Shown in pieces: positions 12,187-27,237 of a stretch of DNA of 64,000 nucleotides; position 1 is the stretch's first letter; each line of letters opens with the position of its first letter. Origin of the DNA: Nonomuraea corallina (lineage in GTDB: Bacteria > Actinomycetota > Actinomycetes > Streptosporangiales > Streptosporangiaceae); the NCBI RefSeq assembly GCF_027620315.1, contig NZ_JAPNNL010000007.1, positions 1 through 64,000 on the forward strand. Direction: 5' to 3'. Position numbers and translations under genes: made by a program. The notes beneath the pieces are model-generated. The model ran no database searches. It saw only the letters and a list, made by a program, of their open reading frames with translations, and was not told where the DNA came from.

Positions 12187-12673
12187 GGCATCCTCGCATT
12201 GATCCGCCGTCACGGAGTCCGGATTCTCCTGGGCAACGAATCGAGGCTGTTTCAAGTTCCTTTCGCCATTCCTTCACCCATCAAGGGAGCGGACAGGGCT
12301 CAGGATGTGCGGTGGGCCGGGCTGAGACATCCGATGGGCGGGACGTGTCAAATCGTGTGGAGCGGTCGTCGACGCGAGCGGCGAGATGTGGGCGCGACGA
12401 GGTGCGCGTCGGCGGTTCCTCCGGCGCGCGGGGTTCGGGGCTGGGAAATCCTCAGCGACAATGGCGATCAGCCCGCGTGGATTCGCAGGGCGGCGGCATG
12501 GCGATCGCCGTGTTCTTTGCGTCGGTCGTGGTGAGCGCGGGTGCCAGGTGAGGCGGTCAGGGCCGCGAACGACCACACCAGAAGCTCCTGTCCAGGCAGC
12601 TGCAGCCGCACGAGACGGGCCACTGCTCTTGCAGGGGGCTGCCCGGGCGCGAGGGCGTGCGAGCCGCTCGGCC
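12187..12673. other. Intergenic region between divergent genes
   Basis: About 490 bases between the small minus-strand gene and the repeat cluster ahead of the DUF4143 ATPase. Open frames on both strands have arginine-rich composition and no ribosome sites, so I see no gene here. The alternative TTG start of the minus-strand gene (12,255) lies inside it. Confidence 0.5.
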
Positions 12674-12765
12674 AGCGACCAACAGCCCATATCAGTGGCG
12701 ACCATTTCACCATGAACATGGCGACCAACTCACCGCGGGTACGGCGACCAATTCACCGCGAGGGA
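12674..12765 (+). repeat. Four 23-bp phased direct repeats (iteron-like)
   Basis: Copies begin at exactly 23-bp spacing: 12,674 (AGCGACCAACAG..., degenerate), 12,697 (GGCGACCATTTCACC...), 12,720 (GGCGACCAACTCACC...) and 12,743 (GGCGACCAATTCACC...). The shared core is GGCGACCAnnTCACC, and identity increases toward the gene. The array ends at the ribosome site of the DUF4143 ATPase, so it likely overlaps its promoter. A cooperative operator is the simplest reading. Confidence 0.75.
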
Positions 12766-12767
12766 TT

Positions 12768-14045
12768 ATGATAGAAAGCATGGTCACCACCCCGCTCGGG
12801 CGCCTGATCCACCGTCACGCGGAGCAAGCAGTCGCGGACGCCTTGGCCGATACGCGCGTCGTCCTGGTCAACGGCGCACGACAGTCGGGCAAGAGCACGC
12901 TGGTCCGGCGGCTCGCCAAGACGGACGGCACCGAGTGGCGCGACCTCGACGATCCGCTGACCTTGCAGGCTGCGTTGAGCGACCCCAGCGGCTTCGTGGA
13001 CTTTCCGGAGCCCATGGTCATCGATGAGATCCAGCGTGCTCCGGAGCTACTGCTCGCCATCAAATCTCAGGTGGACGCCGATCCGAGACCCGGCAGATAC
13101 CTGCTCACCGGCTCCTCCCGGCTACTCGCCCTACGCGGTCTGCCGGACACCCTGCCCGGTCGGATGGAAACCATCGAACTGTGGCCTTTCGCGCAGGGCG
13201 AGATCGACGGCCGTCCCGATGCCTTCATCGACGCGGTGTTCACGCACGGCCCGGCCCTCCGGCACACCTCCCGGCTCACCCGGGCCGACTACGCGGACCG
13301 CCTGGTCCGCGGCGGCTACCCCGAAGCTGTCGCCCGCACCAACCCTCGACGCAGGCAACGCTTCTTCGACTCCTACGTCGGCGATCTGATCAACCGTGAC
13401 GTGATGCAACTGTCGGAGATCGAACGTACCGCGGAACTACGCGCGCTGGTCAGGTCTCTGGCGGCCAGATCCGGTCAACTCCTCGTCGTTCAGGCGCTGG
13501 GCCGTGACCTCGGCCTGCCCGGCACAACCACCGCCAGATTCCTGGCACTGCTGGAAGAAGTCTTCCTGATCAAACGCGTGCCCGCCTGGTCGAAGAACAT
13601 CAGCAGCCGGGCCGTACACACCCCCAAGGTCACCTTTGTCGACTCGGGAGTGGCGGCGAACCTGCTGGGCGTCGACGCCCACAGCCTCCTCCGGCCCGGG
13701 TCCGCATTCGGGCCGCTGCTCGAGGGCTTCGTCCTGACGGAACTGGCCCGGCAGACGACCTGGGCGCACACCTTGGTCGACCTTTACCACTACCGGACCA
13801 AGGACAAGGTGGAGGTGGACGCCGTCCTGGAGAGCCGCCAGGGCCGGGTCGTGGGCATCGAGGTCAAGGCCGCCTCCACCGTACGACCGGACGACTTCAA
13901 AGGACTCCGCCACCTTGCGGAACGGGTGGGCCCCGACTTCGTCGCCGGTCTGGTCCTGCACACCGGCACGCAGACATTCTCCTTCGGCGACCGAATGCTG
14001 GCCGTCCCGGTCAGCGCCCTGTGGGAGGCAACGGCCACGACCTAG
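12768..14045 (+). CDS. AAA ATPase with DUF4143 domain
   Basis: A 425-residue protein of the AAA_14/DUF4143 family. Walker A is NGARQSGKSTL (about residues 37-47), Walker B FPEPMVIDEIQRAPELL, sensor GRYLLTGSSRLL; the C-terminal DUF4143 half ends in a restriction-endonuclease-like core (YHYRTKDKVEVDAVLE...VVGIEVKAA). ATG at 12,768 follows GCGAGGGA. Members are widespread solitary ATPases of unclear function, sometimes linked to conflict systems. This one lies immediately outside the left attachment site of the integrated element and behind the phased repeats. Confidence 0.88.
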   Translation: MIESMVTTPLGRLIHRHAEQAVADALADTRVVLVNGARQSGKSTLVRRLAKTDGTEWRDLDDPLTLQAALSDPSGFVDFPEPMVIDEIQRAPELLLAIKSQVDADPRPGRYLLTGSSRLLALRGLPDTLPGRMETIELWPFAQGEIDGRPDAFIDAVFTHGPALRHTSRLTRADYADRLVRGGYPEAVARTNPRRRQRFFDSYVGDLINRDVMQLSEIERTAELRALVRSLAARSGQLLVVQALGRDLGLPGTTTARFLALLEEVFLIKRVPAWSKNISSRAVHTPKVTFVDSGVAANLLGVDAHSLLRPGSAFGPLLEGFVLTELARQTTWAHTLVDLYHYRTKDKVEVDAVLESRQGRVVGIEVKAASTVRPDDFKGLRHLAERVGPDFVAGLVLHTGTQTFSFGDRMLAVPVSALWEATATT

Positions 14046-14092: not shown

Positions 14093-14137
14093 GGTGGGCG
14101 GTACTGGGTTCGAACCAGTGACCCCTCGCTTGTAAGG
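14093..14137 (-). repeat. Left attachment repeat (displaced 3' half of tRNA-Val)
   Basis: 45 bases identical to 27,164-27,208, covering the tRNA-Val 3' portion from the anticodon loop through the T-arm and acceptor strand. Upstream bases differ: the CCA end is not completed here. Downstream the sequence diverges from the tRNA anticodon stem, so this is an att duplication, not a functional tRNA. Confidence 0.95.
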
Positions 14138-14717
14138 AGCCAAGATCTCCCCTGGCGGTACGCTGACCTGCGATCCGACCTGGGACCCCGATCCCCCGCC
14201 GACCGTCTCCGAGCTGCCCTTATGGCACGCTAATGGCACGGTGATCATGCCTCTTGTCGCAGCTCGCAACCTCATATGATCACGGTTTGTCGGCCACCTT
14301 CCCGCCGTCAAATGGCACGCTAATGGCACGACGATCAAGGGGTGTCCCGCGAGGTGCAGACCTGCACGCATCTCCCCTGCCTGATCTTCCCGTCTGCCTC
14401 GACCCACCGCGAAGCGGCAGCGGGCCGGCGACGGAAGGTCAAGCCCGTCCTCGCGTGTACCTCAACCGGCCGCCGTTCCTCGATCATCAGACGCCAACGG
14501 CCACGGACGGGCTTGAGCTGGAGGAGTCGGGCTGCTGGGCTCTGCCTGGGTCGCGGCAGGCGGGAAGATCAGGCCCACCTCAGCCACTACGGACCCGGCT
14601 CGCGCTCGTCGCGATCATCCCGGAGCCGAGGCCCCCGCCGGAGGCGCAATACGTCGGCAGGAAACTTCGACGGCGTCTGGAGAGTTAAGAGTGGAGAACC
14701 TATGGCGGAGGGGCTAA
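14138..14717. other. Left-end non-coding region of the element
   Basis: 580 bases between the left attachment repeat and the first element gene. Two copies of a 19-bp repeat lie in it (entry at 14,222-14,330). Several open frames cross it but all are arginine/proline-rich with no ribosome site, so I call no gene. Confidence 0.5.
14222..14330 (+). repeat. Left arm-type repeat pair
   Basis: ATGGCACGCTAATGGCACG occurs at 14,222-14,240 and again at 14,312-14,330, each itself a doubled ATGGCACG. A third copy with one mismatch is at the right end (27,106-27,124). Placement just inside both attachment sites is what is expected of integrase arm-binding sites. Confidence 0.7.
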
Positions 14718-15314
14718 GTGGCACTGAGCGACACCTTAGTCTCGACCTTGACAGGCGGCGCTTTGGCGACCCTCGGCACATGGCTTGGGACGCGATGGCA
14801 GGGACGTGAGGCCAAAAGGTCGAGGTTGGAACAATACGAGAGGGACGATCGCCTTCGGCACGAAGCCGATCGCCGAGCGCTATATGCGCGGTTTGCAAGA
14901 CTCCTTACTGAGGTGCTCGACTTAGTAGATGCGCCCGAAGCTTACGACAAGCTCGAGGACCTGGAGCGGCTGTATTGGGAAATAGCCATGATTGGCTCCG
15001 CCGACGTGGTCTACCGCGCGAGGAGTGCCATCATGGCTGTGGCAACCGGACTTGAGGTTGACCCTGAGCTGCTAGTGGCATCTTTCGTGAGGTCTGTTCG
15101 CGAGGAGCTTGGCTTGGCGCAGGAAGGACTACCCCGCAATCTGCTGAGAGACAATGAGCAGCACCTTAGTCGGGAAGCTCAAATCTCTCGCCAACTGCGG
15201 ATGACCGCCCTCGCTCAGGAACAGGGAAAATCTCGAGGACGGCCCACGCTGGCCGCGCGCGAGAACGGCCCCCAGGCCGCACGCGCAGCGCGGCGGCCGA
15301 GCGTGGAGCCGTAA
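14718..15314 (+). CDS. Hypothetical membrane-anchored coiled-coil protein (element cargo)
   Basis: A 198-residue protein of unknown function. GTG at 14,718 follows GGAGGGG. Residues about 5-25 (LVSTLTGGALATLGTWLGTR) form one hydrophobic helix; a charged, helical segment (REAKRSRLEQYERDDRLRHE, then ADRRALYARFARLLTEVLDL) follows and is probably a coiled coil. The last 25 residues are Arg/Ala/Pro-rich and come from a GC-rich patch. It precedes the KAP NTPase but is separated from it by a hairpin. A membrane-linked partner of the KAP protein is possible but unproven. Confidence 0.65.
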   Translation: MALSDTLVSTLTGGALATLGTWLGTRWQGREAKRSRLEQYERDDRLRHEADRRALYARFARLLTEVLDLVDAPEAYDKLEDLERLYWEIAMIGSADVVYRARSAIMAVATGLEVDPELLVASFVRSVREELGLAQEGLPRNLLRDNEQHLSREAQISRQLRMTALAQEQGKSRGRPTLAARENGPQAARAARRPSVEP

Positions 15315-15333
15315 GGCGGCGCGGAGCGCCGCC
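15315..15333 (+). terminator. Hairpin after the first cargo gene
   Basis: Perfect 8-bp stem GGCGGCGC / GCGCCGCC with a GGA loop, starting directly after the TAA stop at 15,312-15,314. There is no long T tract. It probably separates this transcript from the KAP gene. Confidence 0.6.
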
Positions 15334-15366
15334 CTTGATGTCTAAAAGAACAATTCGGCAAGCGAT

Positions 15367-15379
15367 CTAGTGATACTAG
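15367..15379. promoter_or_regulatory. Palindrome upstream of the KAP gene
   Basis: CTAGT-GAT-ACTAG, a 13-bp palindrome in an AT-rich stretch 38 bases upstream of the KAP start. Position suggests an operator or promoter element. No regulator can be assigned. Confidence 0.35.
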
Positions 15380-15416
15380 CTCGTATGAAAATCCAGAGTT
15401 GACGACGGAGGCTGCA

Positions 15417-17465
15417 GTGATTGTTGGAGATGACCCGGTATACGCAGAGAGTGACCGCCTGGGACGGAAATCTCTGGCCGGAAACTGGGCCGACACCATT
15501 ATCAATACAAAGGCGCCATTCGGCCTCGTATTCGCTGTTACTGGCCCGTGGGGGTCAGGAAAGACTTCCATGCTGAATATGATGGAAGAAAAGCTACGGG
15601 CATCAGATGTGACAGTACTCAAGTTCAACCCATGGCTATTTTCTGGCACCGATCAACTAATCAGCCATTTTTTCGGAGAGATGGCGAGCCAACTCGATTA
15701 CGAAGACCCCAAACAGAAGGAGATTGCAGGCAGACTAAAGAAGTATGGCACCCTATTCTCCCCCCTTAAGGCAATACCGGTTATCGGTAGCACTCTTGGC
15801 GGCGCAGCAGACGCTGCTACGACTATTGGAAAGTATTTGGAGGACACGCAAAGTCGAGGCGTGGAAGAGCAACGAAGATTGATCGAGGATTCTTTGCGGG
15901 AACTCGATAGCCCCCTGGTTCTAGTCGTCGACGATATCGACCGCCTCACGGGTCAAGAAATACGCGATGTACTCCGAATGGTCCGTCTTACCGGCGCGTT
16001 CCCCAACCTCATCTATCTACTTTCCTTCGATCGACAGCGCGTTGAATTGGCGCTGAACGAGGACGGCCTTCCCGGAAGAGCCTATCTCGAGAAGATTGTT
16101 CAGGTTATGTATGATGTTCCGGTTGTCGTACGAGACAGCCTGCGCAATATTCTGCTAGACGAACTGAATCATGCCGTTCAAGACACCGGCTACTCCCGAT
16201 TCTCAGCCGAAGCATGGCCGGACGTGCTGGTTGAGATCATTGATCCACTCCTGAATAACATTCGCGACGTTCGGCGCTACATAGGCCCACTGCGAGCAGT
16301 CCTCACCTCTCTAGAGAACGAAGTTGAACTTGTCGACGTCTTAGCTCTGGAGGCTCTGCGCATATTTCTCCCCGATTCCTATGCACTGCTGCCCCACGCT
16401 GCTCGTTCGTTGACTGACACGGCAGACGCGAGCCACGAGTCTTCTGAGCTTAAAGCGCAGGCCGAAGCGTTCGTCAACTCAGATCAAAATCATGCGAACA
16501 TTCTTCGTTCTCTTTGTGCGCGAATTTTCCCTGCATCGCGACGCCGTTTGGGCGAGTACCAACGCTATGGAGGCGATTGGGAACGGACATGGCTACGAGA
16601 ACGCAGAGTGGCCAGTAATTCCGTCCTATCTTTCTACCTCGAGAAATCCATGCCCTCGACTGTGAAGAGTGCCATCACTGCCGAGACTATCTTCAGCCGG
16701 TTTGAGGACCGAGCCTACCTTGAGCATGTCTTCCAGGACATGGATCCCGCCGGCGCGGAAGAAGTAATCAGAGCTCTGGAAGCATACGAGGAGCAGTTTT
16801 CCAATTGCGACCCGATTCCTTCGGCCATAGTGCTGCTCAATCAGCTGCCACGCCTACAGCGTCCTAAGCGTGGGCTCCTTGACCCAGGCCCTACGATAAC
16901 CATATCAAGGGTCGTACTTCGCCTTCTCCGCCCGATCGCTGACCCCGAGCAGGTCCTAAGGATTGTCAAAGACATCCTCCCCAATCTAGAGCAGTATTCT
17001 ACAAAGTTCGAGCTTACGAGACTAGTAGGACACGCGAAAAATGCGGGGCACAAGCTGATATCAGAAACAGCATGGAAGGACCTCGAAACAAGTCTTAAGA
17101 ACGAGGTGCGTGGCGCTTCCGCTGATTCTCTCGCGACGGAATGGGATCTGTTGCGCCTTCTCTGGCAGACAGGCCAAGGCGAGGATTCTCAGGAATGGCA
17201 TATACCTCTCGAGTTTATCGATCACCCCGCTCTTGCTAGAGCAATTCTCACCGACTCTGTCGGAACGACGCAGTCTCAGAGCCTCGACTCCCGAGCGATC
17301 ACCAAAAAGAAGCATCTCGCCTGGGACATCTTGGTGGAGGTTCTCGGCGACGAGAATGCAATTATTCGCTGTCGAGATGCCGCTGCAAGCATCGATGAAA
17401 CAGCAAATGACGTGATAGAGCTGGTTGATCTATACCTATCAGGGTGGCGTCCCCCTAGGTGGTAG
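15417..17465 (+). CDS. KAP family P-loop NTPase (element cargo)
   Basis: A 682-residue KAP NTPase. GTG at 15,417 sits 8 bases after GGAGG; a TTG at 15,399 has no such site. Walker A is GPWGSGKTS (43-51), the family FNPW motif is at 70-73, and Walker B VVDDIDRL near 170-177. Between them residues about 111-138 (LFSPLKAIPVIGSTLGG...) form the hydrophobic insert that many KAP proteins place at the membrane. The C-terminal 400 residues are helical and unassigned. KAP ATPases are known from phage-exclusion (PifA) and other membrane-linked conflict proteins. GC is clearly lower than the flanks (about 55% in one sampled line), pointing to separate acquisition. Confidence 0.88.
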   Translation: MIVGDDPVYAESDRLGRKSLAGNWADTIINTKAPFGLVFAVTGPWGSGKTSMLNMMEEKLRASDVTVLKFNPWLFSGTDQLISHFFGEMASQLDYEDPKQKEIAGRLKKYGTLFSPLKAIPVIGSTLGGAADAATTIGKYLEDTQSRGVEEQRRLIEDSLRELDSPLVLVVDDIDRLTGQEIRDVLRMVRLTGAFPNLIYLLSFDRQRVELALNEDGLPGRAYLEKIVQVMYDVPVVVRDSLRNILLDELNHAVQDTGYSRFSAEAWPDVLVEIIDPLLNNIRDVRRYIGPLRAVLTSLENEVELVDVLALEALRIFLPDSYALLPHAARSLTDTADASHESSELKAQAEAFVNSDQNHANILRSLCARIFPASRRRLGEYQRYGGDWERTWLRERRVASNSVLSFYLEKSMPSTVKSAITAETIFSRFEDRAYLEHVFQDMDPAGAEEVIRALEAYEEQFSNCDPIPSAIVLLNQLPRLQRPKRGLLDPGPTITISRVVLRLLRPIADPEQVLRIVKDILPNLEQYSTKFELTRLVGHAKNAGHKLISETAWKDLETSLKNEVRGASADSLATEWDLLRLLWQTGQGEDSQEWHIPLEFIDHPALARAILTDSVGTTQSQSLDSRAITKKKHLAWDILVEVLGDENAIIRCRDAAASIDETANDVIELVDLYLSGWRPPRW

Positions 17466-17492
17466 CGCCACAAAAGGTGGAGCCTTCACAGG

Positions 17493-17543
17493 CAGGCTTG
17501 GCGCGGATCAGCTGCTCCTTGATCGAGGAGCGCGCCAAGCCTG
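17493..17543 (+). terminator. Strong hairpin after the KAP gene
   Basis: Perfect 13-bp arms CAGGCTTGGCGCG (17,493-17,505) and CGCGCCAAGCCTG (17,531-17,543), with an inner GATCA/TGATC pairing. It begins 28 bases after the stop. There is no T tract, as is common in GC-rich actinomycetes. It is likely the transcript end of the cargo NTPase. Confidence 0.75.
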
Positions 17544-17639
17544 ACTCCTGCATGTATCACTGTCAGCCTAAGACCTACTTACCTTGGGGATAGTAGGATA
17601 TCTCTAGTACGCGAGGACAACAGCCGGTACCTTCCAGCC

Positions 17640-18041
17640 GTGGCAACCAAAAGCGGGAACCGTCTGGTCAAGTATTGGGGCTTCATAACTTTTGGAATTC
17701 TTGTGGCGGGCATCTTCGGATGGATTCCAGACTTGGCTCCGATACTGCTAGTGGCTTTGTCCATAGCGACAAGCTACTTCTTCATCTTTCGAATGCCCGT
17801 ATGGTGTGGTGCCGTGAACAGAGATGGGACCTACTGTCGCGAGAACGCTTACGGGTTGCTCTTGGGCTGCCACCGCCGGCAGCACAAATGGCAGAAGCTC
17901 AAGATGCGCGTGGCACGATCAAAGTGGGCGCAGCTCAATCGAGGACTTTGGACTCAACCACGCGACTGCATCGCCACGCTCGGCGGAATTGCAACTGTGT
18001 TATCTGGAGTAGCAGCTGTCATTCCTTTGATCATGAAGTGA
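17640..18041 (+). CDS. Small membrane protein with Cys/His motif (element cargo)
   Basis: A 133-residue protein with two N-terminal membrane helices (about 12-30 and 33-50), then a conserved-looking cytosolic block with possible metal ligands (PVWCGAVNRDGTYCRENAYG and GLLLGCHRRQHKW: C-x8-C...C-x4-H), and a C-terminal hydrophobic helix (ATLGGIATVLSGVAAVIPLI). GTG at 17,640 lacks a strong ribosome site. It overlaps tail-to-tail by 11 bases with the flavoprotein gene. Function unknown. It is adjacent to the KAP gene but behind that gene's hairpin. Confidence 0.65.
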   Translation: MATKSGNRLVKYWGFITFGILVAGIFGWIPDLAPILLVALSIATSYFFIFRMPVWCGAVNRDGTYCRENAYGLLLGCHRRQHKWQKLKMRVARSKWAQLNRGLWTQPRDCIATLGGIATVLSGVAAVIPLIMK

Positions 18042-18579
18042 GCGGCGCTCGGCCTAGGCACGTTAACGTCAGGTGCCAAGGGTAGGAATCGATGCGGTCC
18101 CCTCCCATACTTGCCGGGTGAGGCTGAAAATGGCCAGGGCCTAGGAGAACCCGAACTCCCTCCACACGAAGCGTCTCGACGCTGCGCTGGAACGGCTCGC
18201 GAGCTGCGAGGGCGCTGTTTACGAAGGGCAGAATCACCATCGGGATACCGAGGCCGGGCGCTTCGGCGAGCAGGCCGAGGGCGTAGGTGTCGGCGATACC
18301 TTGAGCGAACTTGTTGATGGTGTTGTAGGTCGCGGGGGCAACGATGATCGCATCCGCCCTCGGCGGCTTGGGATCGCCTGGTTTGCGGTACTGGCTGCGC
18401 ACGGGGCGGCCGGTCTGCTTCTCCAGCGCGGGCACGTCGATGAAGTCGAGCGCGTTCGGGGTGGCGACGATTTGGACGGTCCATCCGTCGTCCTGTGCCA
18501 TCGTGACGAGCTTGCCGACGTCGCCGGCGGGTCCTGCGGCGCAGACGATGATGTACAGGACCTTGCCGGTGTTGGTCAC
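18031..18579 (-). CDS. Flavoprotein, HFCD (phosphopantothenoylcysteine decarboxylase-like) family
   Basis: A 182-residue protein of the flavoprotein superfamily. It has an N-terminal Rossmann strand (GKVLYIIVCAAGPA), the FMN-binding core around ADAIIVAPATYNTINKFAQGIADTYAL and LLAEAPGLGIPMVILPFVNSALAAREPFQRS, matching the PPCDC/EpiD pattern (APATxNTxxKxAxGxAD). GTG at 18,579 overlaps the stop of the upstream XRE regulator (GTGA), so the two are coupled. This regulator/flavoprotein pair is common in actinomycetes near mobile elements; the actual substrate is not known. Confidence 0.8.
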   Translation of the reverse strand: MTNTGKVLYIIVCAAGPAGDVGKLVTMAQDDGWTVQIVATPNALDFIDVPALEKQTGRPVRSQYRKPGDPKPPRADAIIVAPATYNTINKFAQGIADTYALGLLAEAPGLGIPMVILPFVNSALAAREPFQRSVETLRVEGVRVLLGPGHFQPHPASMGGDRIDSYPWHLTLTCLGRAPLTS

Positions 18580-20003
18580 GCGGTGACTCCCAGAGATTCG
18601 GCGTACTCCCGCGCTTCGCGTCGGATGCTGATCGGCGCGGTGGCGAGGATGTCGCGGACCAGCCTATGAGTGGTGGGGCGGCTGGTGATTTCCTCGGGGG
18701 CGATGTCTCCGGCGGCCCGCAGGATGTACAGGGCGCGGTCGTGCTTGCCCCACGCGAGGAACGCGCGAGAGGTGTCCAGGAGGACGGTCGCCTTGCGCTC
18801 ATTGACGGGCAAGGCGTTGATGTCGATCCTGCGAGCGTTCTCGATCGCGCTTCCGGCATCGCCAAGGGAGAGGGCGATGTTCACCCGGTGGCACAGGACG
18901 TTGTTCGGGCCGAACGCGGTCCACATGTGGTTGCCGTCGTAGCCGAGTCGCCGGCCTGCGTCCTCGGCCTCGTCCAGGAGTTCGGCGGCGGTGTGCCGGT
19001 TGCTGTGCTGGGCGGCGGCAACGGCCCCGCGCAAGAGGAGTGTCCCGTACACCGACAGGTCGTTCGGGGACGGATGGGCCAGGGCGGCGTTCAGGCGTTG
19101 AGCGGCGCTGCTCGCCATGCCGGTCGCTGCTCGGTGGTGGCCACCGTCCATCAGGGCGTGGGTGATGATGCGGGCGCTTGAGCCCATCATCAGCGGGCTC
19201 TCGCTGGCCTGGGCGGCGTGGACGCTGCGGTCGGCAGCAAGCCAAGCGAGGCCCTTGTCCTCCTGCTTGAGCAGGATGGAGGCGGCCACATGGTGCGCCT
19301 CAGCGGACAGGGCGTGCGCCTTGAGCCGAGCGTCCCCGTCGAGCGTGGCGCACGCAAGGCGCAGAGAGCGGATCAGCGTGGGAAGCATGGCCGCGACCTC
19401 GGAGTATCGGCACGCCTGGTAGCTTCGCTTCGCCCTGGTGACAGCGGAGGCAAGTTGCGACAGCTCCGGGAGCTGGGGGCCGGCGACCGGGTATTCGGTG
19501 AGGGCTGCGGCGAGATCGTCGGCGCCGGCGGCTTCCTCGTCGCGGGTGAGGGGCTGGGCTACTACGGCACTGAACAGGGCGGCCCCCGCGAGGCCGACGA
19601 AGTCACGACGTCGCACTTCGGTCTCGTCCTCTCCGTGTCGGACGAGATCAACGGTAGGCGGCGGACCTGCTGGGCGGGCATCCTGCCGTGGGATGGCTGC
19701 GGCGGCCAGGTCGCGGGGAGCGAGGCCGAGAGCCATGCGGGCATGGTCAGGCATGTGCAGGCCATCCGCGATGCGCTCGAACACCTCCAGGGCGGTGACC
19801 TGCTGGCTTCCGCTCATGATGGCGCTGACCTTGCCCTGGCTGTAGCCGGTCAGGCTGCCGATCGCGGTCTGGCTCAAGCCCCCGTACTGGCGGACGAGGC
19901 GGAAGACTGCGCCGATGTCGCGGGCCTTGAGCGCAGCGAGCATGTCGGAGCGGTGCCATAGCGAGGCGGGGACCTCGTACGGCTCGGCCATGCGTGGCGG
20001 CAT
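18576..20003 (-). CDS. XRE-family regulator with TPR-like C-terminal domain
   Basis: About 475 residues. The N-terminal helix-turn-helix (DIGAVFRLVRQYGGLSQTAIGSLTGYSQGKVSAIMSG region) is XRE type. A linker with RRRDFVGLAGAALFSAVVAQPL follows, then about 300 residues of helical TPR-like repeats. This layout is typical of actinomycete Cro/CI-TPR regulators that may sense peptides. ATG at 20,003 follows AAGGGAAA; 19,991 is an alternative. It is divergent from the small-gene operon at 20,135 and may control it as well as the coupled flavoprotein. Confidence 0.82.
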   Translation of the reverse strand: MPPRMAEPYEVPASLWHRSDMLAALKARDIGAVFRLVRQYGGLSQTAIGSLTGYSQGKVSAIMSGSQQVTALEVFERIADGLHMPDHARMALGLAPRDLAAAAIPRQDARPAGPPPTVDLVRHGEDETEVRRRDFVGLAGAALFSAVVAQPLTRDEEAAGADDLAAALTEYPVAGPQLPELSQLASAVTRAKRSYQACRYSEVAAMLPTLIRSLRLACATLDGDARLKAHALSAEAHHVAASILLKQEDKGLAWLAADRSVHAAQASESPLMMGSSARIITHALMDGGHHRAATGMASSAAQRLNAALAHPSPNDLSVYGTLLLRGAVAAAQHSNRHTAAELLDEAEDAGRRLGYDGNHMWTAFGPNNVLCHRVNIALSLGDAGSAIENARRIDINALPVNERKATVLLDTSRAFLAWGKHDRALYILRAAGDIAPEEITSRPTTHRLVRDILATAPISIRREAREYAESLGVTA

Positions 20004-20134
20004 CCGCGGGCTTTCCCTTCGCACCGGGCGGGCAACGGAAAGTGCCTTCCACTGCTACGCGGTCGCGACCTATCCCGTCAAGGGATGCCACGCGGGGATG
20101 GGCTGGGAGAACGAGAATTCCGACCCTTGATCCC

Positions 20135-20299
20135 ATGGTTACGGAGATGGACAGATGCGGAGCCTGCCGGGGGAAGGGCTGGCGGTTCGTTCGGAAGTCC
20201 TCGGCCGATGCCCGGCTTCGGCTTGACGGTGTGGCCGTGGAGTTGGTGGCGGTCGACTGCTTCGACTGTGCGGGTACCGGCCTGCCGGCGGCGGCGTGA
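20135..20299 (+). CDS. Small DnaJ-type zinc-finger protein
   Basis: A 54-residue protein with two CxxC pairs of the DnaJ cysteine-rich type: CGACRGKGW near the start and CFDCAGTG near the end, with a beta-rich middle (ADARLRLDGVAVELVAV). It should bind one zinc ion. ATG at 20,135 was chosen as the first in-frame start; the ribosome site is weak. The stop overlaps the next gene (GTGA), opening a run of three overlapping small genes. Similar small zinc-finger proteins accompany many AICEs; role unknown. Confidence 0.6.
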   Translation: MVTEMDRCGACRGKGWRFVRKSSADARLRLDGVAVELVAVDCFDCAGTGLPAAA

Positions 20300-20640
20300 T
20301 GGGCGCTGATCAGCTTGTGTACGGTCGGCGGCCCCCGGTGGTCACCGCTGCCCACACTGCGGAGCGGCTGCGTGTGGAGCTGGAGCAGTACGGCGTGGCG
20401 GCCGACGTGCACGAGGGGTACGGGTTGGCGCTGGTGTCGGTCTGGGTCGAGCTGGTCGTGTGGACCGATGGCCATTGGTTCCGCTGGCGCTCGGGCCGTA
20501 CCTCGACCAGCGGGCGGCCCGTCTACGCCTTCGCCCCGGCCTCCGACGTCGTCACCGCCGCGCGCCGGGTGGCGCATCGGTACGGGCAACTCCGCCACGT
20601 CCACCCGTGCCTGCCGTACCTCGCTGGCGAGGGCTCGTGA
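20296..20640 (+). CDS. Hypothetical AICE protein
   Basis: A 114-residue protein. GTG at 20,296 overlaps the preceding stop; ATG at 20,299 is the alternative start. It is an alpha/beta protein (TAERLRVELEQYGVAADVHE, then LALVSVWVELVVWTDGHWFR) with no motif I recognise. It overlaps the next gene by GTGA, so the three small genes are co-translated. Similar small proteins recur in Streptomyces-type elements; function is unknown. Confidence 0.6.
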   Translation: MMGADQLVYGRRPPVVTAAHTAERLRVELEQYGVAADVHEGYGLALVSVWVELVVWTDGHWFRWRSGRTSTSGRPVYAFAPASDVVTAARRVAHRYGQLRHVHPCLPYLAGEGS

Positions 20641-20930
20641 ACGACCTCGACGAGCCTGATCGCCTGCACAGCGCACACGTCCCCATCCGCCGGGGCAACT
20701 TCCGGAAACTGGAGTGGTGGAAGCCGACGCCCGCGCGGCGCGTCCGGGTCCTGGCCTGGACGTGCGACTGTCAGGCCCGGTTCTACGAACTGTGCCAGTC
20801 GGGCGGTGTCGCCTTCATCCGGCGCACCGTGCAGAACGAGGACGCCCCTGAGATCAGCGAGACCCACCGCTGGCGGGTGGGGCAGGGCTGGGAGACCTGG
20901 TCGGCGCTGCTGACTGGTCAGGTCCGATAG
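20637..20930 (+). CDS. Hypothetical AICE protein, Trp/Cys-containing
   Basis: A 97-residue protein from GTG 20,637 (GTGA overlap). It contains CDCQARFYELCQSGGVAFIR, a possible zinc-binding C-x-C...C arrangement, and several tryptophans (EWWKP, WRVGQGWETW). Last of the three overlapping small genes, followed by a 155-base gap to the GntR regulator. Not recognised beyond resemblance to other element-borne small proteins. Confidence 0.6.
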   Translation: MNDLDEPDRLHSAHVPIRRGNFRKLEWWKPTPARRVRVLAWTCDCQARFYELCQSGGVAFIRRTVQNEDAPEISETHRWRVGQGWETWSALLTGQVR

Positions 20931-21042
20931 ACGGGCGCGGCGGCGTGGTCGACTCCATCAAGGCGCGGGTGTCCTGCGCCGTCGCGCTCAGGGGGTAGGA
21001 GTTCATGTCGGCGGAAGCCCTTCGCAAGGATCGCATGCACTG

Positions 21043-21085: not shown

Positions 21086-21817
21086 ATGTCATTTGAATAC
21101 ACCCCTCCCAAATACGCGCAACTGATCGCCGAACTGGAACGGCGCATCGAGTCCGGCGAGTACCCGCCCGGCTCTCCCCTACCGAGCGAACATCAGCTCA
21201 TGGCCGAGTTCGGCATGGCACGGCCGACCGTCGTCAAGGCCCTGGGCGTGCTGCGCGATCACGGCTGGATCGTCACCCACCAAGGCAAAGGCCGGTTCGT
21301 CCGGGGACGCCCGGCCATCGCCTCCACCCAACAGGTACGCACCGGACGTGAACTGCTCGACCGCAAAGAGGTCCAGGTCTCCAGCCGACTCCTCACAGCG
21401 GGGCCGGCCGAAGCGCCCAACCGCATCGCCTCCTACCTCGGCATCACACCGAAGTCGCCGGTGATGCTCCGCAAGACCCTCGTCACCCGCGACGACGAGC
21501 CGTCCGAGGTCTCCTCGACCTGGGTCCCCGCAGACGTGGCCGAAGGCACGGCACTGACGGACTCGGCCGATCTCAAGCAGGGCGTACGGCGCTACGTCGA
21601 AGCCGCTGCCGGCGTCGAACTGGACCACATCGTCGAGCACGTGACTGCCCGCAACCCCACACCGGAGGAGCGAGACCTCCTCGGCGTCAAGGCCTCGGCC
21701 GCACTGCTGGCCGTCTATGCCGTCGCCTGCGACGCCACCGGTAAACCCTGGATCGTGGTGGAGACGGTCCTCCCCGGCGACCGTCACGAGCTCGAAGACG
21801 CCTACCCCATCCGGTAA
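21086..21817 (+). CDS. GntR family regulator, KorSA-like
   Basis: A 243-residue regulator with an N-terminal winged helix (YAQLIAELERRIESGEYPPG followed by SPLPSEHQLMAEFGMARPTVVKALGVLRDHGW, about residues 9-60) and a C-terminal UTRA ligand-binding domain. By position and family it corresponds to KorSA of pSAM2, which silences the Pra activator and so keeps the element integrated. ATG at 21,086 follows GGGG. Operator copies lie upstream of it and ahead of the Pra-like gene. Confidence 0.88.
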   Translation: MSFEYTPPKYAQLIAELERRIESGEYPPGSPLPSEHQLMAEFGMARPTVVKALGVLRDHGWIVTHQGKGRFVRGRPAIASTQQVRTGRELLDRKEVQVSSRLLTAGPAEAPNRIASYLGITPKSPVMLRKTLVTRDDEPSEVSSTWVPADVAEGTALTDSADLKQGVRRYVEAAAGVELDHIVEHVTARNPTPEERDLLGVKASAALLAVYAVACDATGKPWIVVETVLPGDRHELEDAYPIR

Positions 21818-22742: not shown

Positions 22743-24155
22743 ATGTTCCGAAAACTGCCTGGCGACGAGGCGCGTAACCTCGTCTCCACCACACCGGACA
22801 CGGCCGTGGTCTTCCGCCCGGCTGTCGTCCGAACCCCCGCCATCGTCACGATCGTGATCTGGCTATCCCGCCTGGTTGCGGGCCTGGTCCGTCTCGTGGT
22901 TCGGCATCCGGTCGCGGTGGCCGTGCCGGTCGCCTTTGGGGTGATCTGGACCCTGTACGGCTGGCGGCTGGCCCTGGTGATGGCCGGGTTCCTGCCCTCG
23001 GCGGGCCTGTCGTGGGCGCTGCTGGATCGGGCCTCGTTTCTGCGCCTGGTCGGCTGGCGACTGCTGGCCTTCGCCCGCTGGTTCTGGATCTATCGGCGGC
23101 ACTGGCAACCCGTCATGGTCGTCTCCGGCCTCGGGCGGCACATCCGGGGACGCGACTACCTGCCCCGCTTGATCCGCGTGGAGTGCGACGGGTGGGCCGA
23201 CCGCGTGAGCGTGAAGATGCTCAACGGCCAAGCGGTCACCGACTGGGCGGACCGTATCGAGCACCTGGCCCACGGCTTCGGCGCTGCATCCTGCCGGGTG
23301 GCCGTTGCTCGCGCTGGGCGGCTCGTGCTCACCTTCCCCCGGCGCGACCCCCTCGCCGAACCGCTGCCCGCCGTTCCCATCCCTGATGTGGCCTCGGTGG
23401 GGCCGGTGGAGATCGGACGGTGCGAGGACGGCACTCCGCTGCGGCTCAAGGTCCACGGCACACATGTCCTGATTGCGGGCGCGACCGGGGCCGGTAAGGG
23501 CTCCTATCTGTGGTCGACAATCCGCGGCCTCCTCCCGGCGATGCGGGCGGGCCTGGTGCAGGTGTGGGCGCTCGATCCCAAGCGCATGGAGCTGTCCTTC
23601 GGCCGTGCGCTGTTCGGCGCGAGGTACGCCGCCGACCCGAAGGAGTGCGCCGACCTGCTCGACGAGGCCGTGTGCGTGATGCAGGAGCGGGCCGACCGGT
23701 TCGCCGGCCTCCAGCGCTCCCACACACCGACCGTCGATGACCCGTTCGTCCTGGTGCTCGTCGACGAGGTGGCGTTCCTGACGGCCTACCAGCCCGACAA
23801 GCACCTGAGGCAGCGCATCGTGGCGGCCCTGGCCACGCTGACCACGCAGGGCCGGGCGGTGGGCGTCGGGGTCATGGCCGCGTTGCAGGACCCGCGCAAG
23901 GAGGTCATGAACATCCGCAACCTGTTCCCCGACAAGATCGCCCTCCGGTTGGACGAGTCGGAACAGGTGGACATGGTCCTCGGCGACGGGGCACGCGACC
24001 GGGGAGCTCTCGCCGATCACATCTCACCGGTTCCCGAGCTGGGCGCGGGCGTCGGCTACGTCGGGCTGGAGACCTCCCCTGATCCACTGCGCGTGCGTGC
24101 GGCGTACGTCTCCGACGCCGACATCCGGGCGATGGTCGCCGGGGTGAGCCGATGA
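22743..24155 (+). CDS. FtsK/SpoIIIE-type conjugal transfer ATPase (TraSA-like)
   Basis: A 470-residue DNA translocase. Two or three N-terminal membrane helices (about 38-100: IVTIVIWLSRLVAGLVRLVV, VAVAVPVAFGVIWTLYGWRL) are followed by the motor domain with Walker A GATGAGKGS (about 245-253) and Walker B VLVLVDEVAF (about 337). A single such protein moves double-stranded DNA between mycelia in AICEs. ATG at 22,743. The stop overlaps the zinc-ribbon gene (ATGA), making a tra-zinc ribbon-rep-int operon. Confidence 0.93.
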   Translation: MFRKLPGDEARNLVSTTPDTAVVFRPAVVRTPAIVTIVIWLSRLVAGLVRLVVRHPVAVAVPVAFGVIWTLYGWRLALVMAGFLPSAGLSWALLDRASFLRLVGWRLLAFARWFWIYRRHWQPVMVVSGLGRHIRGRDYLPRLIRVECDGWADRVSVKMLNGQAVTDWADRIEHLAHGFGAASCRVAVARAGRLVLTFPRRDPLAEPLPAVPIPDVASVGPVEIGRCEDGTPLRLKVHGTHVLIAGATGAGKGSYLWSTIRGLLPAMRAGLVQVWALDPKRMELSFGRALFGARYAADPKECADLLDEAVCVMQERADRFAGLQRSHTPTVDDPFVLVLVDEVAFLTAYQPDKHLRQRIVAALATLTTQGRAVGVGVMAALQDPRKEVMNIRNLFPDKIALRLDESEQVDMVLGDGARDRGALADHISPVPELGAGVGYVGLETSPDPLRVRAAYVSDADIRAMVAGVSR

Positions 24156-24334
24156 TGCGCCTGGCTCACATCCTCGACGGCCTGCGCTGCTCCTGCTGCG
24201 GCGCCCTCGATGTGCTCTGGCTCGACCCCGTGCGCGGGACCGTCGAGTGCCACGAATGCGGCCAGAAAGCCACCGTCATCGTTGACGGCCTCGACCTGGT
24301 TGACGCCCTCGACAGGTGCGGGGGTGACTGGTGA
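24152..24334 (+). CDS. Small zinc-ribbon protein
   Basis: A 60-residue protein with two CxxC knuckles (CSCCGALDVLW and CHECGQKATVIV), i.e. a zinc ribbon, and an acidic tail. ATG at 24,152 overlaps the transfer-ATPase stop, and its own stop overlaps the Rep GTG. It occupies the usual slot of a small accessory gene between tra and rep. It has no helix-turn-helix typical of Xis, so I do not call it an excisionase. Confidence 0.65.
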   Translation: MMRLAHILDGLRCSCCGALDVLWLDPVRGTVECHECGQKATVIVDGLDLVDALDRCGGDW

Positions 24335-25947
24335 CCAACCGGCACGACCGCTCCACTCCTCGCGCCGTACGGATGGCTCAACCGCTGGCCCGCGAGGTCG
24401 TGGAAGAGATCGCCAAACAGTACGGCGTGTGCATCCGGCCGGTTCCGCTGAGGCGGCAGGACATCCTCATCGGTCAGGTTGAGGTCATTGACGTTCCCTG
24501 CGGGGCGACGTTGGAGAGCAAGTGCCCGCCGTGCGCGAAGCGGAATCGCCAGTTGCGGCGGGCGCAGTGCCGGGAGGGCTGGCATCTGGAAGCCGAGCCG
24601 GTCAACCTGCCCGACAACCCCGATGAGTATCAGCGCCACCTCGTGGAGCTGCGGGCCGACGCCCAGGCGTGGCGGGATGAGGTGGAAAAGGCCGGCGGCG
24701 ACACCACCGACCTGGACGCCGCGATCGTGGAGCTGGACGAGGAGATCAACCGGGCGGGCATGCGCGGCAACGTCCTCGGCCGTACCTCCGGCAAGCGGTC
24801 GCGCTCGACCAAGCGGCGGCAGGACGCCCCGGACCTGCCCAAGCGGCAGATGACCAAGACCACGCTCGGGCGGACCTTCACCGGCTCGGACGGCAAGGTC
24901 TACCGGCCCTCGATGTTCATCACGCTCACCCTGCCCTCCTACGGGCGGGTGCTAGAAGGTGCGCCAATCGACCCTGACCGGTACGACTACGCACGGGCGG
25001 CTCGCGACGCACTGCACTTCTCCAAGCTCGTCGATCGCTTCGTGCAGAACCTCCGCCGGGTCGCCGGATACGACGTGCAGTACTTCGCCACCGTCGAGCC
25101 TCAGAAGCGGCTCGCGCCACATCTGCACATGGCGATCCGCGGGACCCTGCCCCGTGCGGAGCTGCGGCAGATCATCGCCGCGACCTACCACCAGGTGTGG
25201 TGGCCGTCGACTGACCACGTGCGATTCGAGGGGGACTGCCTGCCTGTGTGGGAGGACGGGGCCGGCTACCTCGACCCGATCACGGGGGAAGTCCTGCCGA
25301 CCTGGGACCAGGCCCTCGACCAGCTCGACCAAGACGAGGACGCGCAACCCCTGCACGTCCTGCGCTTCGGCGACCAGCTCGACATACAAAGCGTCCTCGC
25401 CGGAACCCCGGACGCCGACCAACTCATCCAGTACCTCTCCAAGTACCTCACCAAGTCCCTCGGCGACGCCCTCGGCACCGACGACCTACGCCGCAAGGCT
25501 CACGCCGAACGGCTGCTGGAGGCTCTGCGGTTCGAGCCGTGCTCGCCGACGTGCCCGAACTGGCTGCGCTACGGGGTGCAGCCGAAGGGCGCCAAACCGG
25601 GGATGGCTCCGGGCCGGTGCAGGGGCAAGGCGCACAAGCCCGATCACCTTGGCTACGCGGGCCGCCGCGTGCTCGTCTCGCGGAAGTGGTCCAACAAGAC
25701 CCTGACCGAGCACAAGCAGGACCGGCGTACCTGGGTCCTGGAAGCGCTCGGCCTGCCTGACGAGCCGGTCGATCCCCACCGCTACGTCTGGCGACCGGTC
25801 AAGCCCGGTGATCCCGAGCTGGCCCCGATCGGCGTGCGGCTGCTCCGCTCGGTCCACGAACGCCAGCGCTGGCGCAACCACATGAACCAGCTCCAGGCGC
25901 TCGGGGACGGGCCGAATCTTTCGGCAACGGAAGCGAGGGCGGCCTGA
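24331..25947 (+). CDS. HUH rolling-circle replication initiator (RepSA-like)
   Basis: A 538-residue initiator. N-terminal Cys pairs (CGATLESKCPPCAKRNRQL) suggest a zinc finger. The endonuclease motifs are present: motif 1 FITLTLPSYG near residue 195, HUH motif PHLHMAI near 263, and the tyrosine motif QYLSKYLTKSL near 367. It nicks its origin and starts rolling-circle copying of the excised circle. GTG at 24,331 overlaps the zinc-ribbon gene, and its TGA shares a base with the integrase ATG. The origin itself was not located. Confidence 0.92.
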   Translation: MTNRHDRSTPRAVRMAQPLAREVVEEIAKQYGVCIRPVPLRRQDILIGQVEVIDVPCGATLESKCPPCAKRNRQLRRAQCREGWHLEAEPVNLPDNPDEYQRHLVELRADAQAWRDEVEKAGGDTTDLDAAIVELDEEINRAGMRGNVLGRTSGKRSRSTKRRQDAPDLPKRQMTKTTLGRTFTGSDGKVYRPSMFITLTLPSYGRVLEGAPIDPDRYDYARAARDALHFSKLVDRFVQNLRRVAGYDVQYFATVEPQKRLAPHLHMAIRGTLPRAELRQIIAATYHQVWWPSTDHVRFEGDCLPVWEDGAGYLDPITGEVLPTWDQALDQLDQDEDAQPLHVLRFGDQLDIQSVLAGTPDADQLIQYLSKYLTKSLGDALGTDDLRRKAHAERLLEALRFEPCSPTCPNWLRYGVQPKGAKPGMAPGRCRGKAHKPDHLGYAGRRVLVSRKWSNKTLTEHKQDRRTWVLEALGLPDEPVDPHRYVWRPVKPGDPELAPIGVRLLRSVHERQRWRNHMNQLQALGDGPNLSATEARAA

Positions 25948-27083
25948 TGGCGAACAAGGCAGGTCACCGTCGCTTCGGGAGCATCCGCAAGCTGCCGTCC
26001 GGGCGCTTCCAGATCCGCTATCCCGGACCGGACGGAAAGCTGCGCAGCGGAGAGACGACATACGAGCGGGAGCGCGACGCCGAGCGGGCGTTGTCCCTGC
26101 TCGAAGCGAAGATGGTCACCGGGGACTGGACGGACCCGCAGCGGTCCAAGGTCAAGCTCGGCGACTACGCGGCCAAGTGGATCAGTGAGCGGACGGAGCT
26201 GCGGCCCCGGACGGTCGAGATCTACAGCGGGCTTCTCCGGCGGCACGTCGCTCCGTATTTCGGCAATGTCCCCCTCGGGAAAATCAATACGGAGATGGTC
26301 CGCGAGTGGCGGGCGACTCTGGCGAGCAACGGCGTCGGGGCAACGGAGATCGCAAAGGCGTACCGGTTCCTGCGGGCCGTGCTCATGACCGCGACGGACG
26401 ACCAGCTCATTCCGCGCAACCCCTGCCGCATTCGCGGTGCCGGGGAGGAGAAGTCGGAAGAGCGGCCGGTCCTCACGGTGGCCCAGGTGTTCCAGCTCGC
26501 CGACCTGGTGCCGGTACGGCTGCGCGCGTTGATCCTGCTCGCCACCTTCGCGAGCCTGCGGTGGGGCGAGGTCGCAGCGCTGCGGCGGATGGACCTGGAC
26601 CTGAACGCCGGGACGGTCAGCGTTCGGCAACAGCACGTCGAGTTGGACACGGGCGAACTCCTCGTCGGGCCGCCCAAGTCCCGTGCCGGTCTGCGGACGG
26701 TGGCGATCCCAGAGGCGATCATTCCGGCGCTGCGTCAGCACCTCGACCAGTTCACCGAGCCAGAACCGACCGCGCTCGTCTTCACCGGGGCGAACGGCGG
26801 CATCCTGCGGCGCAGCAACTTCCGGCGGGCGGCCAAGTGGAGCGAGACGATACGCAAGCTCGGCGTCCCCGGGCTCCACTTCCACGATCTTCGCCACACC
26901 GGGAACACGATCGCGGCCAGTGCCGGCGCTTCCCTCCGCGACCTGATGGCACGGATGGGACATGACAGCGTGCGCGCCGCGATGATCTACCAGCACCGAA
27001 CAGCGGAAGCAGACCACAAGATCGCCGACGTCATGAACGGCAAGATCACACAGGTCCTACCGACCGAGGCGAGTGGTCACTGA
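25947..27083 (+). CDS. int: Tyrosine site-specific integrase
   Basis: A 378-residue phage-type integrase. An N-terminal arm-binding AP2-like region (FGSIRKLPSGRFQIRYPGPDG) and SAM-like core-binding domain precede the catalytic domain with Arg in ATFASLRWGEV (about 204), Lys in PPKSRAGLRTV, the HDLRH box near 311, GHDSVRAAMIYQH with the second His and nucleophilic Tyr near 346. It recombines the 45-bp tRNA-Val core. The ATG shares one base with the rep stop (TGATG), so integrase is made with Rep. Confidence 0.95.
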   Translation: MANKAGHRRFGSIRKLPSGRFQIRYPGPDGKLRSGETTYERERDAERALSLLEAKMVTGDWTDPQRSKVKLGDYAAKWISERTELRPRTVEIYSGLLRRHVAPYFGNVPLGKINTEMVREWRATLASNGVGATEIAKAYRFLRAVLMTATDDQLIPRNPCRIRGAGEEKSEERPVLTVAQVFQLADLVPVRLRALILLATFASLRWGEVAALRRMDLDLNAGTVSVRQQHVELDTGELLVGPPKSRAGLRTVAIPEAIIPALRQHLDQFTEPEPTALVFTGANGGILRRSNFRRAAKWSETIRKLGVPGLHFHDLRHTGNTIAASAGASLRDLMARMGHDSVRAAMIYQHRTAEADHKIADVMNGKITQVLPTEASGH

Positions 27084-27105: not shown

Positions 27106-27124
27106 ATGGCACGTTAATGGCACG
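27106..27124 (+). repeat. Right arm-type repeat
   Basis: ATGGCACGTTAATGGCACG, 18 of 19 bases identical to the two left-end copies. It lies between the integrase stop and the attachment core, in the position expected for an integrase arm site. Confidence 0.7.
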
Positions 27125-27154
27125 AGCCCCGTTTTCCCTGAGGGAGACGGGGCT
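27125..27154 (+). terminator. Intrinsic terminator after the integrase
   Basis: AGCCCCGT (27,125-27,132) pairs with ACGGGGCT (27,147-27,154), with an inner CCCT/AGGG pairing, followed by TGTTT. It lies between the arm site and the attachment core, and insulates the tRNA from element transcripts. Confidence 0.75.
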
Positions 27155-27162
27155 TGTTTCGC

Positions 27163-27237
27163 TGGTGGGCGGTACTGGGTTCGAACCAGTGACCCCTCGC
27201 TTGTAAGGCGAGTGCTCTACCGCTGAGCTAACCGCCC
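27163..27237 (-). tRNA. tRNA-Val (UAC anticodon)
   Basis: A complete tRNA on the minus strand. The acceptor stem GGGCGGT pairs with ACCGCCC, the anticodon stem is CTCGC/GCGAG with loop CTTACAA giving anticodon UAC, and the T-loop TTCGAA is present. The 3' CCA is encoded. Its 3' half is the attachment core of the integrated element, which restores the gene on insertion. Confidence 0.95.
27164..27208 (-). repeat. Right attachment repeat inside tRNA-Val
   Basis: 45 bases identical to 14,093-14,137, running from the anticodon stem/loop of tRNA-Val to its 3' end. Together the two repeats define the element boundaries. Confidence 0.95.

What the first reader, a model, noticed from the sequence alone, without database searches (positions are those of the whole stretch)
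14718..18041. Low-GC KAP NTPase cargo module inside an actinomycete ICE
Between the left attachment site and the AICE backbone lie three membrane-linked genes: a membrane/coiled-coil protein (198 aa), a 682-aa KAP P-loop NTPase with intact Walker A/B and hydrophobic insert, and a two- or three-helix Cys-containing protein. Their DNA is visibly less GC-rich than both the element backbone and the chromosome. The KAP gene has its own upstream palindrome and a strong hairpin behind it. KAP ATPases include PifA-type phage-exclusion proteins, so a mobile defence cassette is plausible. This is the best candidate in the window for an undescribed system.
Basis: partly seen in the sequence, partly recalled or inferred. 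Interest (0 to 1): 0.72.

Follow-up and report, generated by a model that had tools for sequence, protein, structure and literature searches.

The report
Lone PifA-like gene in mobile element
A soil bacterium's mobile DNA element carries one unusually AT-rich gene for a KAP-type ATPase, distantly related to known phage-blocking proteins; the two genes beside it are independent passengers, and the 'palindrome' in front of it is a folded element that this whole class of mobile elements shares and that does not appear to have been described.

Summary
The element is a genuine AICE with a 45-bp att repeat in tRNA-Val. The KAP ATPase (15417-17465) is intact, under purifying selection, and is the lowest-GC stretch of the window.

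The three genes do not belong together. A 57%-identical KAP sits alone at the same position in an AICE of another genus, without P1 or P3. P3 occurs in 45 of 250 Streptosporangiales genomes, usually without KAP. P1 is rare and occupies a different slot.

The "KAP's own palindrome" is a 125-bp structured repeat ("B") of the AICE backbone. Its helix shows compensatory changes, it has no Rfam match, and in 38 of 38 testable copies it lies on the same strand as the rolling-circle gene repSA. I propose that it is a single-strand origin. It separates two cargo slots, and the whole cargo block is exchanged between otherwise closely related AICEs.

KAP is PifA-related but not PifA: 225 against 963 bits on PADLOC's PifA model, and in a separate clade. 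Its predicted ATPase fold is closest to RdrA of RADAR. The most likely role is a single-gene exclusion or abortive factor. Defence is inferred, not shown.

The parts
14093..14137 (.). attL core, 45-bp direct repeat of the 3' part of tRNA-Val
   Evidence: 100% identical to 27164-27208; the same 45 bp flanks the KAP elements of G576 and G506
14222..14337 (.). two 26-bp direct repeats ATGGCACGCTAATGGCACG..., probable integrase arm sites
   Evidence: copies at 14222-14247 and 14312-14337, and a third at 27106-27131 next to attR; role inferred
14360..14646 (+). element A: conserved non-coding left-end block of AICEs
   Evidence: precedes B on the same strand in many AICEs
14718..15314 (+). P1, 198-aa ORF, cargo slot 1; last 26 codons overlap B
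   Evidence: dN/dS 0.25; relatives in only 3/250 genomes
15237..15361 (+). element B: 125-bp structured repeat of the AICE backbone, candidate single-strand origin (sso)
15417..17465 (+). KAP P-loop NTPase, 682 aa (GTG start behind GGAGG, same start as in L204; the TTG at 15399 would give 688 aa)
17493..17543 (+). 13-bp-stem hairpin behind KAP (no T-run), possible terminator
   Evidence: fold z -3.6; kept in L029
17640..18041 (+). P3, 133-aa protein with three hydrophobic helices and an invariant C3H motif; common AICE slot-2 gene
   Evidence: 45/250 genomes; alignment A3; hydropathy
18031..18579 (-). flavoprotein (PF02441), AICE regulatory module
   Evidence: right edge of the exchanged block
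18576..20024 (-). HTH_31 regulator
21086..21817 (+). GntR-UTRA regulator
22743..24155 (+). FtsK/TraB-type transfer protein
24331..25947 (+). RepSA rolling-circle initiator
   Evidence: PF20199 E 3e-104
25947..27083 (+). tyrosine integrase
27164..27208 (.). attR core inside intact tRNA-Val (27163-27237, minus strand)

Best explanation
The locus is the cargo end of an AICE, not a three-gene system. Shown: the order is attL - integrase arm repeats - element A - slot 1 (here P1) - element B - slot 2 (here KAP then P3) - regulators - FtsK - RepSA - Int - attR; B is a structured backbone element, KAP is a lone gene directly behind B, and the block from the end of A to the flavoprotein gene is exchanged between AICEs. 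Inferred, function: KAP is a single-gene exclusion factor of the PifA/RdrA type. The N-terminal AAA+/KAP ATPase (residues 1-320) would assemble into a ring or cluster when the faster-diverging helical C-terminal domain senses an invader, probably a phage; the hydrophobic loop between Walker A and B would then act at the membrane and stop or kill the infected cell. This protects the clonal mycelium and so the element. Inferred, B: it is the AICE's single-strand origin, where second-strand synthesis is primed after RepSA-driven rolling-circle replication.
For: KAP is alone with B in L204; P3 mostly lacks KAP; co-occurrence counts come from 250-genome order-level draws. Mosaic: window vs L077 is 92% identical up to about 14650, 31-66% over 14650-18200, and mostly 84-99% beyond about 18250. 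Three KAP alleles share GC 0.52-0.53 in 0.65-0.68 GC surroundings. KAP is intact and under purifying selection; C-terminal identity to the sister alleles is 0.48-0.49 against 0.66-0.67 for the N-terminal domain. PADLOC PifA E 6e-67. The best solved fold is RdrA, Z 17.3 over 326 residues at 4.5 A, against at most 12.9 for non-RdrA rows. KAP relatives lie in IMG/VR proviruses. B: 38/38 copies with a RepSA in the fetched stretch are on its strand, 35 upstream of it; 7/26 pairs with compensatory change; found with RepSA only 48-50% identical.
Against: No phenotype is known to me for any KAP of this clade, and F PifA is only 19-25% identical. The fold match covers only the ATPase half; the C-terminal domain has no significant match. 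The membrane step rests on a weakly hydrophobic, low-confidence loop. Even PifA protects against very few phages, and it has been suggested that immunity is not its first role (PMC8594841). B's orientation is partly fixed by overall AICE synteny, and no sso assay exists.
Confidence: 0.55

Rival explanations
1. P1, KAP and P3 form one membrane-linked defence system.
For: All three are adjacent, co-directional and under purifying selection in the window and in Microbispora H11081. P3 also follows KAP in L077.
Against: KAP without P1 and P3 in L204; P3 in 45/250 genomes, mostly without KAP; no P1 in L077; backbone element B lies between P1 and KAP.
Confidence: 0.08
2. KAP serves the AICE itself: it excludes or destabilises competing conjugative elements (as pSAM2 Pif does by another route), or helps maintenance, rather than blocking phages.
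For: KAP is directly behind B in all four AICEs that carry it, which share one att site. AICEs are known to carry conjugal-immunity genes (PMC3218068). Several different AICEs coexist in one genome.
Against: KAP is found in only 5/250 genomes while AICEs are common. Relatives lie in proviruses and on plasmids.
Confidence: 0.25
3. Element B is not an origin but a transcribed structured RNA, or the clt transfer site recognised by TraB.
For: G-U pairs occur at several positions of the helix, as in RNA. clt sites are also cis-acting (PMC3218068).
Against: No 8-bp repeat array of the TRS kind stands out in B (by eye). In L184-L186 and L190 B is kept with RepSA although no FtsK is detected. Following genes lie in either orientation.
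Confidence: 0.35
4. The block is neutral passenger DNA in decay, like many AICE cargo genes.
For: A high level of pseudogenisation of AICE cargo genes was reported in one Streptomyces population (PMC9513070).
Against: Four intact KAP ORFs with conserved catalytic motifs; dN/dS 0.16.
Confidence: 0.07

Closest known systems
PifA of plasmid F (T7 exclusion, KAP family)
   Same: KAP domain plus long helical C-terminal part, similar length (682 vs 741 aa), no clear TM helix in either, carried by a conjugative element
   Different: 19-25% identity; 225 vs 963 bits on the PADLOC PifA model, matching only residues 10-436; separate clade; no pifC partner
RdrA of RADAR
   Same: Closest solved fold of the ATPase half (Z 17.3, 326 residues)
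   Different: No RdrB deaminase nearby; 14% identity; ring formation is not tested
Tmn (KAP NTPase with two TM segments)
   Same: KAP-family defence protein (PMC11846954)
   Different: Tmn has two transmembrane segments; this KAP has none that is clear
QatA of qatABCD
   Same: KAP-type ATPase; weak NCBIfam/PADLOC match
   Different: 48 bits against a cut-off of 600; no qatBCD genes
pSAM2-type AICEs
   Same: RepSA, FtsK/TraB, tyrosine Int, GntR, tRNA att site
   Different: Streptosporangiaceae lineage with conserved elements A and B, and two cargo slots around B
sti/sso of pIJ101
   Same: Non-coding element of a rolling-circle actinomycete replicon (PMC4170104), the functional analogue proposed for B
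   Different: No sequence comparison was made; B's function is untested

Membership tests
KAP P-loop NTPases (PF07693) | Pfam KAP model above its gathering score | tested here: met
   158 bits vs cut-off 20
KAP P-loop NTPases (PF07693) | Walker A, Walker B and an insert between them | tested here: met
   invariant G..G.GKT and DD.DR columns; long insert between them
KAP P-loop NTPases (PF07693) | transmembrane segments in the insert (many but not all members) | tested here: inconclusive
   hydropathy maximum 1.2; 1.6 in the sister alleles; low pLDDT there
PifA proper | full-length similarity to F PifA | tested here: not met
   225 bits over residues 10-436 vs 963 bits full length for F PifA; BLASTP only over the KAP half, 25%
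PifA proper | groups with F PifA in a tree | tested here: not met
   PifA clade (support 1.0) is separate from the actinobacterial KAP clade
PifA proper | excludes a T7-like phage | not testable with these tools
   needs a plaque assay
QatA / qatABCD | QatA model above cut-off and qatBCD neighbours | tested here: not met
   48 vs 600 bits; no such neighbours
RADAR | RdrA with adjacent RdrB adenosine deaminase | tested here: not met
   neighbours are P1, P3 and AICE genes
RADAR | RdrA-like ATPase fold | tested here: inconclusive
   best VIA match Z 17.3, over the ATPase half only
AICE | tRNA att repeats, tyrosine Int, RCR Rep, FtsK-type Tra | tested here: met
Single-strand origin (sso) of RCR elements, for element B | folded non-coding DNA, fixed orientation relative to rep | tested here: met
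Single-strand origin (sso) of RCR elements, for element B | its loss makes single-stranded DNA accumulate | not testable with these tools
   needs a plasmid assay

The most novel reading that the evidence does not exclude
It also forms the fixed border around which cargo such as this KAP clade is swapped between elements.
Probability: 0.45. Interest if true: 0.6.

Novelty: new member of a known kind. Interest (0 to 1): 0.45.

Why it matters
It replaces a supposed three-gene system by a simpler, testable picture. AICEs in this family have a left-end cargo zone with two slots around a conserved structured element, and a PifA/RdrA-type ATPase has been swapped in and out of it as a lone gene. If B is the single-strand origin, it gives a sequence-and-structure signature for finding AICEs and a handle on how they replicate their second strand; Rfam and the papers I could search gave no description of it. 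If KAP works, actinomycete conjugative elements carry a phage-exclusion ATPase in a clade with no tested member known to me.

Tried and rejected
- Three-gene module: rejected by co-occurrence.
- B as an A-gene-B gene cassette of integron or transposon type: considered when A and B were found bracketing single genes and direct B pairs lay 3-12 kb apart. Dropped because A and B occur once per AICE and, where I could see, pairs are tandem AICEs (L137).
- B as a general genome repeat: rejected; one strong copy in the own genome (a second weak 31-bit model hit).
- B as a known RNA: no Rfam match at E up to 0.5.
- PifA membership: rejected.
- Solved structures by sequence: nothing significant.
- C-terminal domain fold: 364 residues, pLDDT 78, Foldseek best E 0.066, VIA best Z 7.9 among HEAT-type solenoids, which is no evidence of kinship.
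- Faster non-synonymous change in the C-terminal half between the two closest copies: not significant (p 0.26).
- P3 relatives in IMG/VR: none. P1 and P3 on PLSDB plasmids: none.
- F plasmid under accession AP001918: not held; NC_002483 used instead.
Full report
Observation. The middle one is a KAP P-loop NTPase (PF07693, E 3.5e-46; PADLOC PifA, E 6e-67). P1 and P3 hit no Pfam, PADLOC or NCBIfam family above threshold (a sub-threshold HGGxSTG match for P3). The element is a bona fide AICE: a perfect 45-bp direct repeat at 14093-14137 and 27164-27208 inside tRNA-Val, RepSA (E 3e-104), FtsK/SpoIIIE, tyrosine integrase, GntR-UTRA, flavoprotein and HTH_31. 15501-17500 is the lowest-GC 2-kb stretch of the 64 kb (0.532); KAP is 0.532 and P3 0.535, against 0.684 for the backbone; P1 before B is 0.588.

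Coding. Microbispora sp. H11081 carries the same AICE (96% DNA identity over 14391-20945). Synonymous change exceeds non-synonymous change in all three genes: KAP dN/dS 0.16, p 2e-11; P1 0.25, p 0.018; P3 0.24, p 0.038. The window's genome is in the same family as this Microbispora by the tool's kinship labels (G541 holds the same 22,482-base contig), so the host is a member of the Streptosporangiaceae; its genus is not named.

The three genes are not a unit. In draws of 250 Streptosporangiales genomes, P3 was found in 45, KAP (E at most 1e-30) in 5 and P1 in 3. P3 relatives often stand next to the AICE flavoprotein and regulator with no KAP (L069, L079, L080, L081) or elsewhere in the genome with no detected AICE gene. 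In G506, another genus, a 57%-identical KAP lies directly behind element B in an AICE with the same 45-bp att site, but no P3, flavoprotein or P1 was detected. In G576 (L077) much of the backbone is nearly identical to the window's, but KAP is 56-57% and P3 42% identical and P1 is absent. A base-by-base profile shows 92% identity up to about 14650, 31-66% from 14650 to about 18200, and mostly 84-99% beyond 18250, apart from deletions in L077. The cargo block has therefore been exchanged as DNA between AICEs. All three KAP alleles have GC 0.52-0.53, which points to a shared origin and composition rather than a recent arrival in one strain (inference).

The palindrome. Positions 15237-15361 are one copy of a repeat, B, with sharp ends. 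It is in 47 of 101 family genomes, often several per genome, and has no Rfam match at E up to 0.5. It folds better than all of 200 shuffles (z -3.9). An alignment of 24 copies has 7 of 26 pairs with compensatory change, strongest in the distal stem (C-G 13 / G-C 8; G-C 12 / C-G 7). A covariance model finds it in 41 of 247 class genomes, including other families. There it again lies upstream of, and on the same strand as, a RepSA only 48-50% identical. Over 59 copies, 38 have a RepSA in the fetched stretch: all 38 are on the same strand, 35 with RepSA downstream. In the other three the nearest RepSA hit lies upstream; in two of them it belongs to a neighbouring element. Of the 21 without RepSA, 13 had under 12 kb of downstream sequence to look at. 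L137 holds two tandem AICEs, each with its own A and B. B is therefore backbone, and P1's last 26 codons are read from it. Element A (14360-14646) precedes B in the same orientation in many of these elements. Two cargo slots follow: A-to-B (P1 here, unrelated genes elsewhere) and B-to-regulators (KAP and P3 here, P3 alone or other genes elsewhere). In some elements (L068, L069, L071) P3 lies on the left side of B instead.

What B may be. AICEs replicate by rolling circle with RepSA acting at a dso (PMC3218068). Streptomyces RCR plasmids use an sso for second-strand synthesis, called sti in pIJ101 (PMC4170104). B's fold, fixed polarity and tie to RepSA fit an sso. The tie to FtsK is weaker: four elements in another family keep B with RepSA but show no detectable FtsK. 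This is a proposal; an RNA or a transfer site is not excluded.

KAP itself. The GTG at 15417 sits behind GGAGG and matches the start of the G506 allele. Walker A and Walker B are invariant in ten relatives. F PifA scores 963 bits on PADLOC's PifA model, the window KAP 225 and L077 232. BLASTP to F PifA covers only the KAP half at 25%. In a tree of the KAP half, PifA of F and Serratia fall in their own clade with two IMG/VR proteins, and the AICE KAPs sit with other actinobacterial KAPs. So it is PifA-like, not PifA. AlphaFold2 on window, H11081 and IMG/VR relatives gave mean pLDDT 77.7. The ATPase half matches RdrA of RADAR best (Z 17.3, 326 residues, 4.5 A; the best non-RdrA row is 12.9). The C-terminal half is helical with no significant match. 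Between alleles it is less conserved (0.48-0.49) than the ATPase half (0.66-0.67), as expected of a recognition domain (inference). Relatives sit in IMG/VR proviruses, some near tail or integrase-like genes, and, mostly as distant partial matches, on over a thousand plasmids.

Mechanism. Shown: position, mobility, integrity, selection and predicted fold of the ATPase half. Inferred from PifA (thought to sense T7 proteins and depolarise the membrane, PMC8594841) and from RdrA (heptameric AAA+ ring, PMC9994260): KAP is a single-chain sensor-ATPase that stops infected cells. Against it, PifA itself has a very narrow range and its immune role has been questioned (PMC8594841). The main rival is exclusion of other conjugative elements, since AICEs are known to carry conjugal immunity (pSAM2 Pif, PMC3218068).

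Novelty. AICEs with predicted phage-resistance cargo are known (PMC9513070), and KAP defence proteins are known (PifA, QatA, and Tmn in PMC11846954). KAP here is a new member of a known kind. B is the part that may be new.

Noticed in passing
15237-15361 and loci: 125-bp structured repeat B, apparently one per RepSA-type AICE across at least two actinobacterial families, no Rfam match; candidate single-strand origin.
   Followed up: yes
14360-14646: Second conserved non-coding block A, left of B in the same orientation, with 28-bp inverted repeats (14379-14406 / 14547-14574); function unknown.
   Followed up: partly
14222-14247, 14312-14337, 27106-27131: Direct repeats ATGGCACGNTAATGGCACG near both element ends, probable integrase arm-binding sites; also upstream of A in L098, L101, L107, L122.
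   Followed up: partly
L029 6730-7599 vs window 20946-21003: The Microbispora H11081 copy carries an APH-type phosphotransferase gene (PF01636, E 7e-13) where the window has about 58 bp: a third cargo site.
   Followed up: partly
17640-18041 and relatives: P3 family: 130-140-aa proteins with two N-terminal and one C-terminal hydrophobic helices and an invariant C-C-C-H motif (C56, C66, C77, H82), in 45/250 Streptosporangiales genomes, in AICEs and elsewhere; a possible membrane-anchored metal site of unknown role.
   Followed up: partly
12657-14045: DUF4143/AAA_14 ATPase gene directly outside attL, strong PADLOC candidate-defence match (PDC-S01, E 2e-182).
   Followed up: no
L068 and L069 (upstream of P3): Other AICEs carry 416+573-aa and 808-aa genes of unknown function upstream of P3, on the attL side of B: further candidate cargo.
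   Followed up: no
G000:C90:31063-31821 (L020, L093): The own genome holds a second KAP protein (928 aa) on another contig, in a distant clade.
   Followed up: partly
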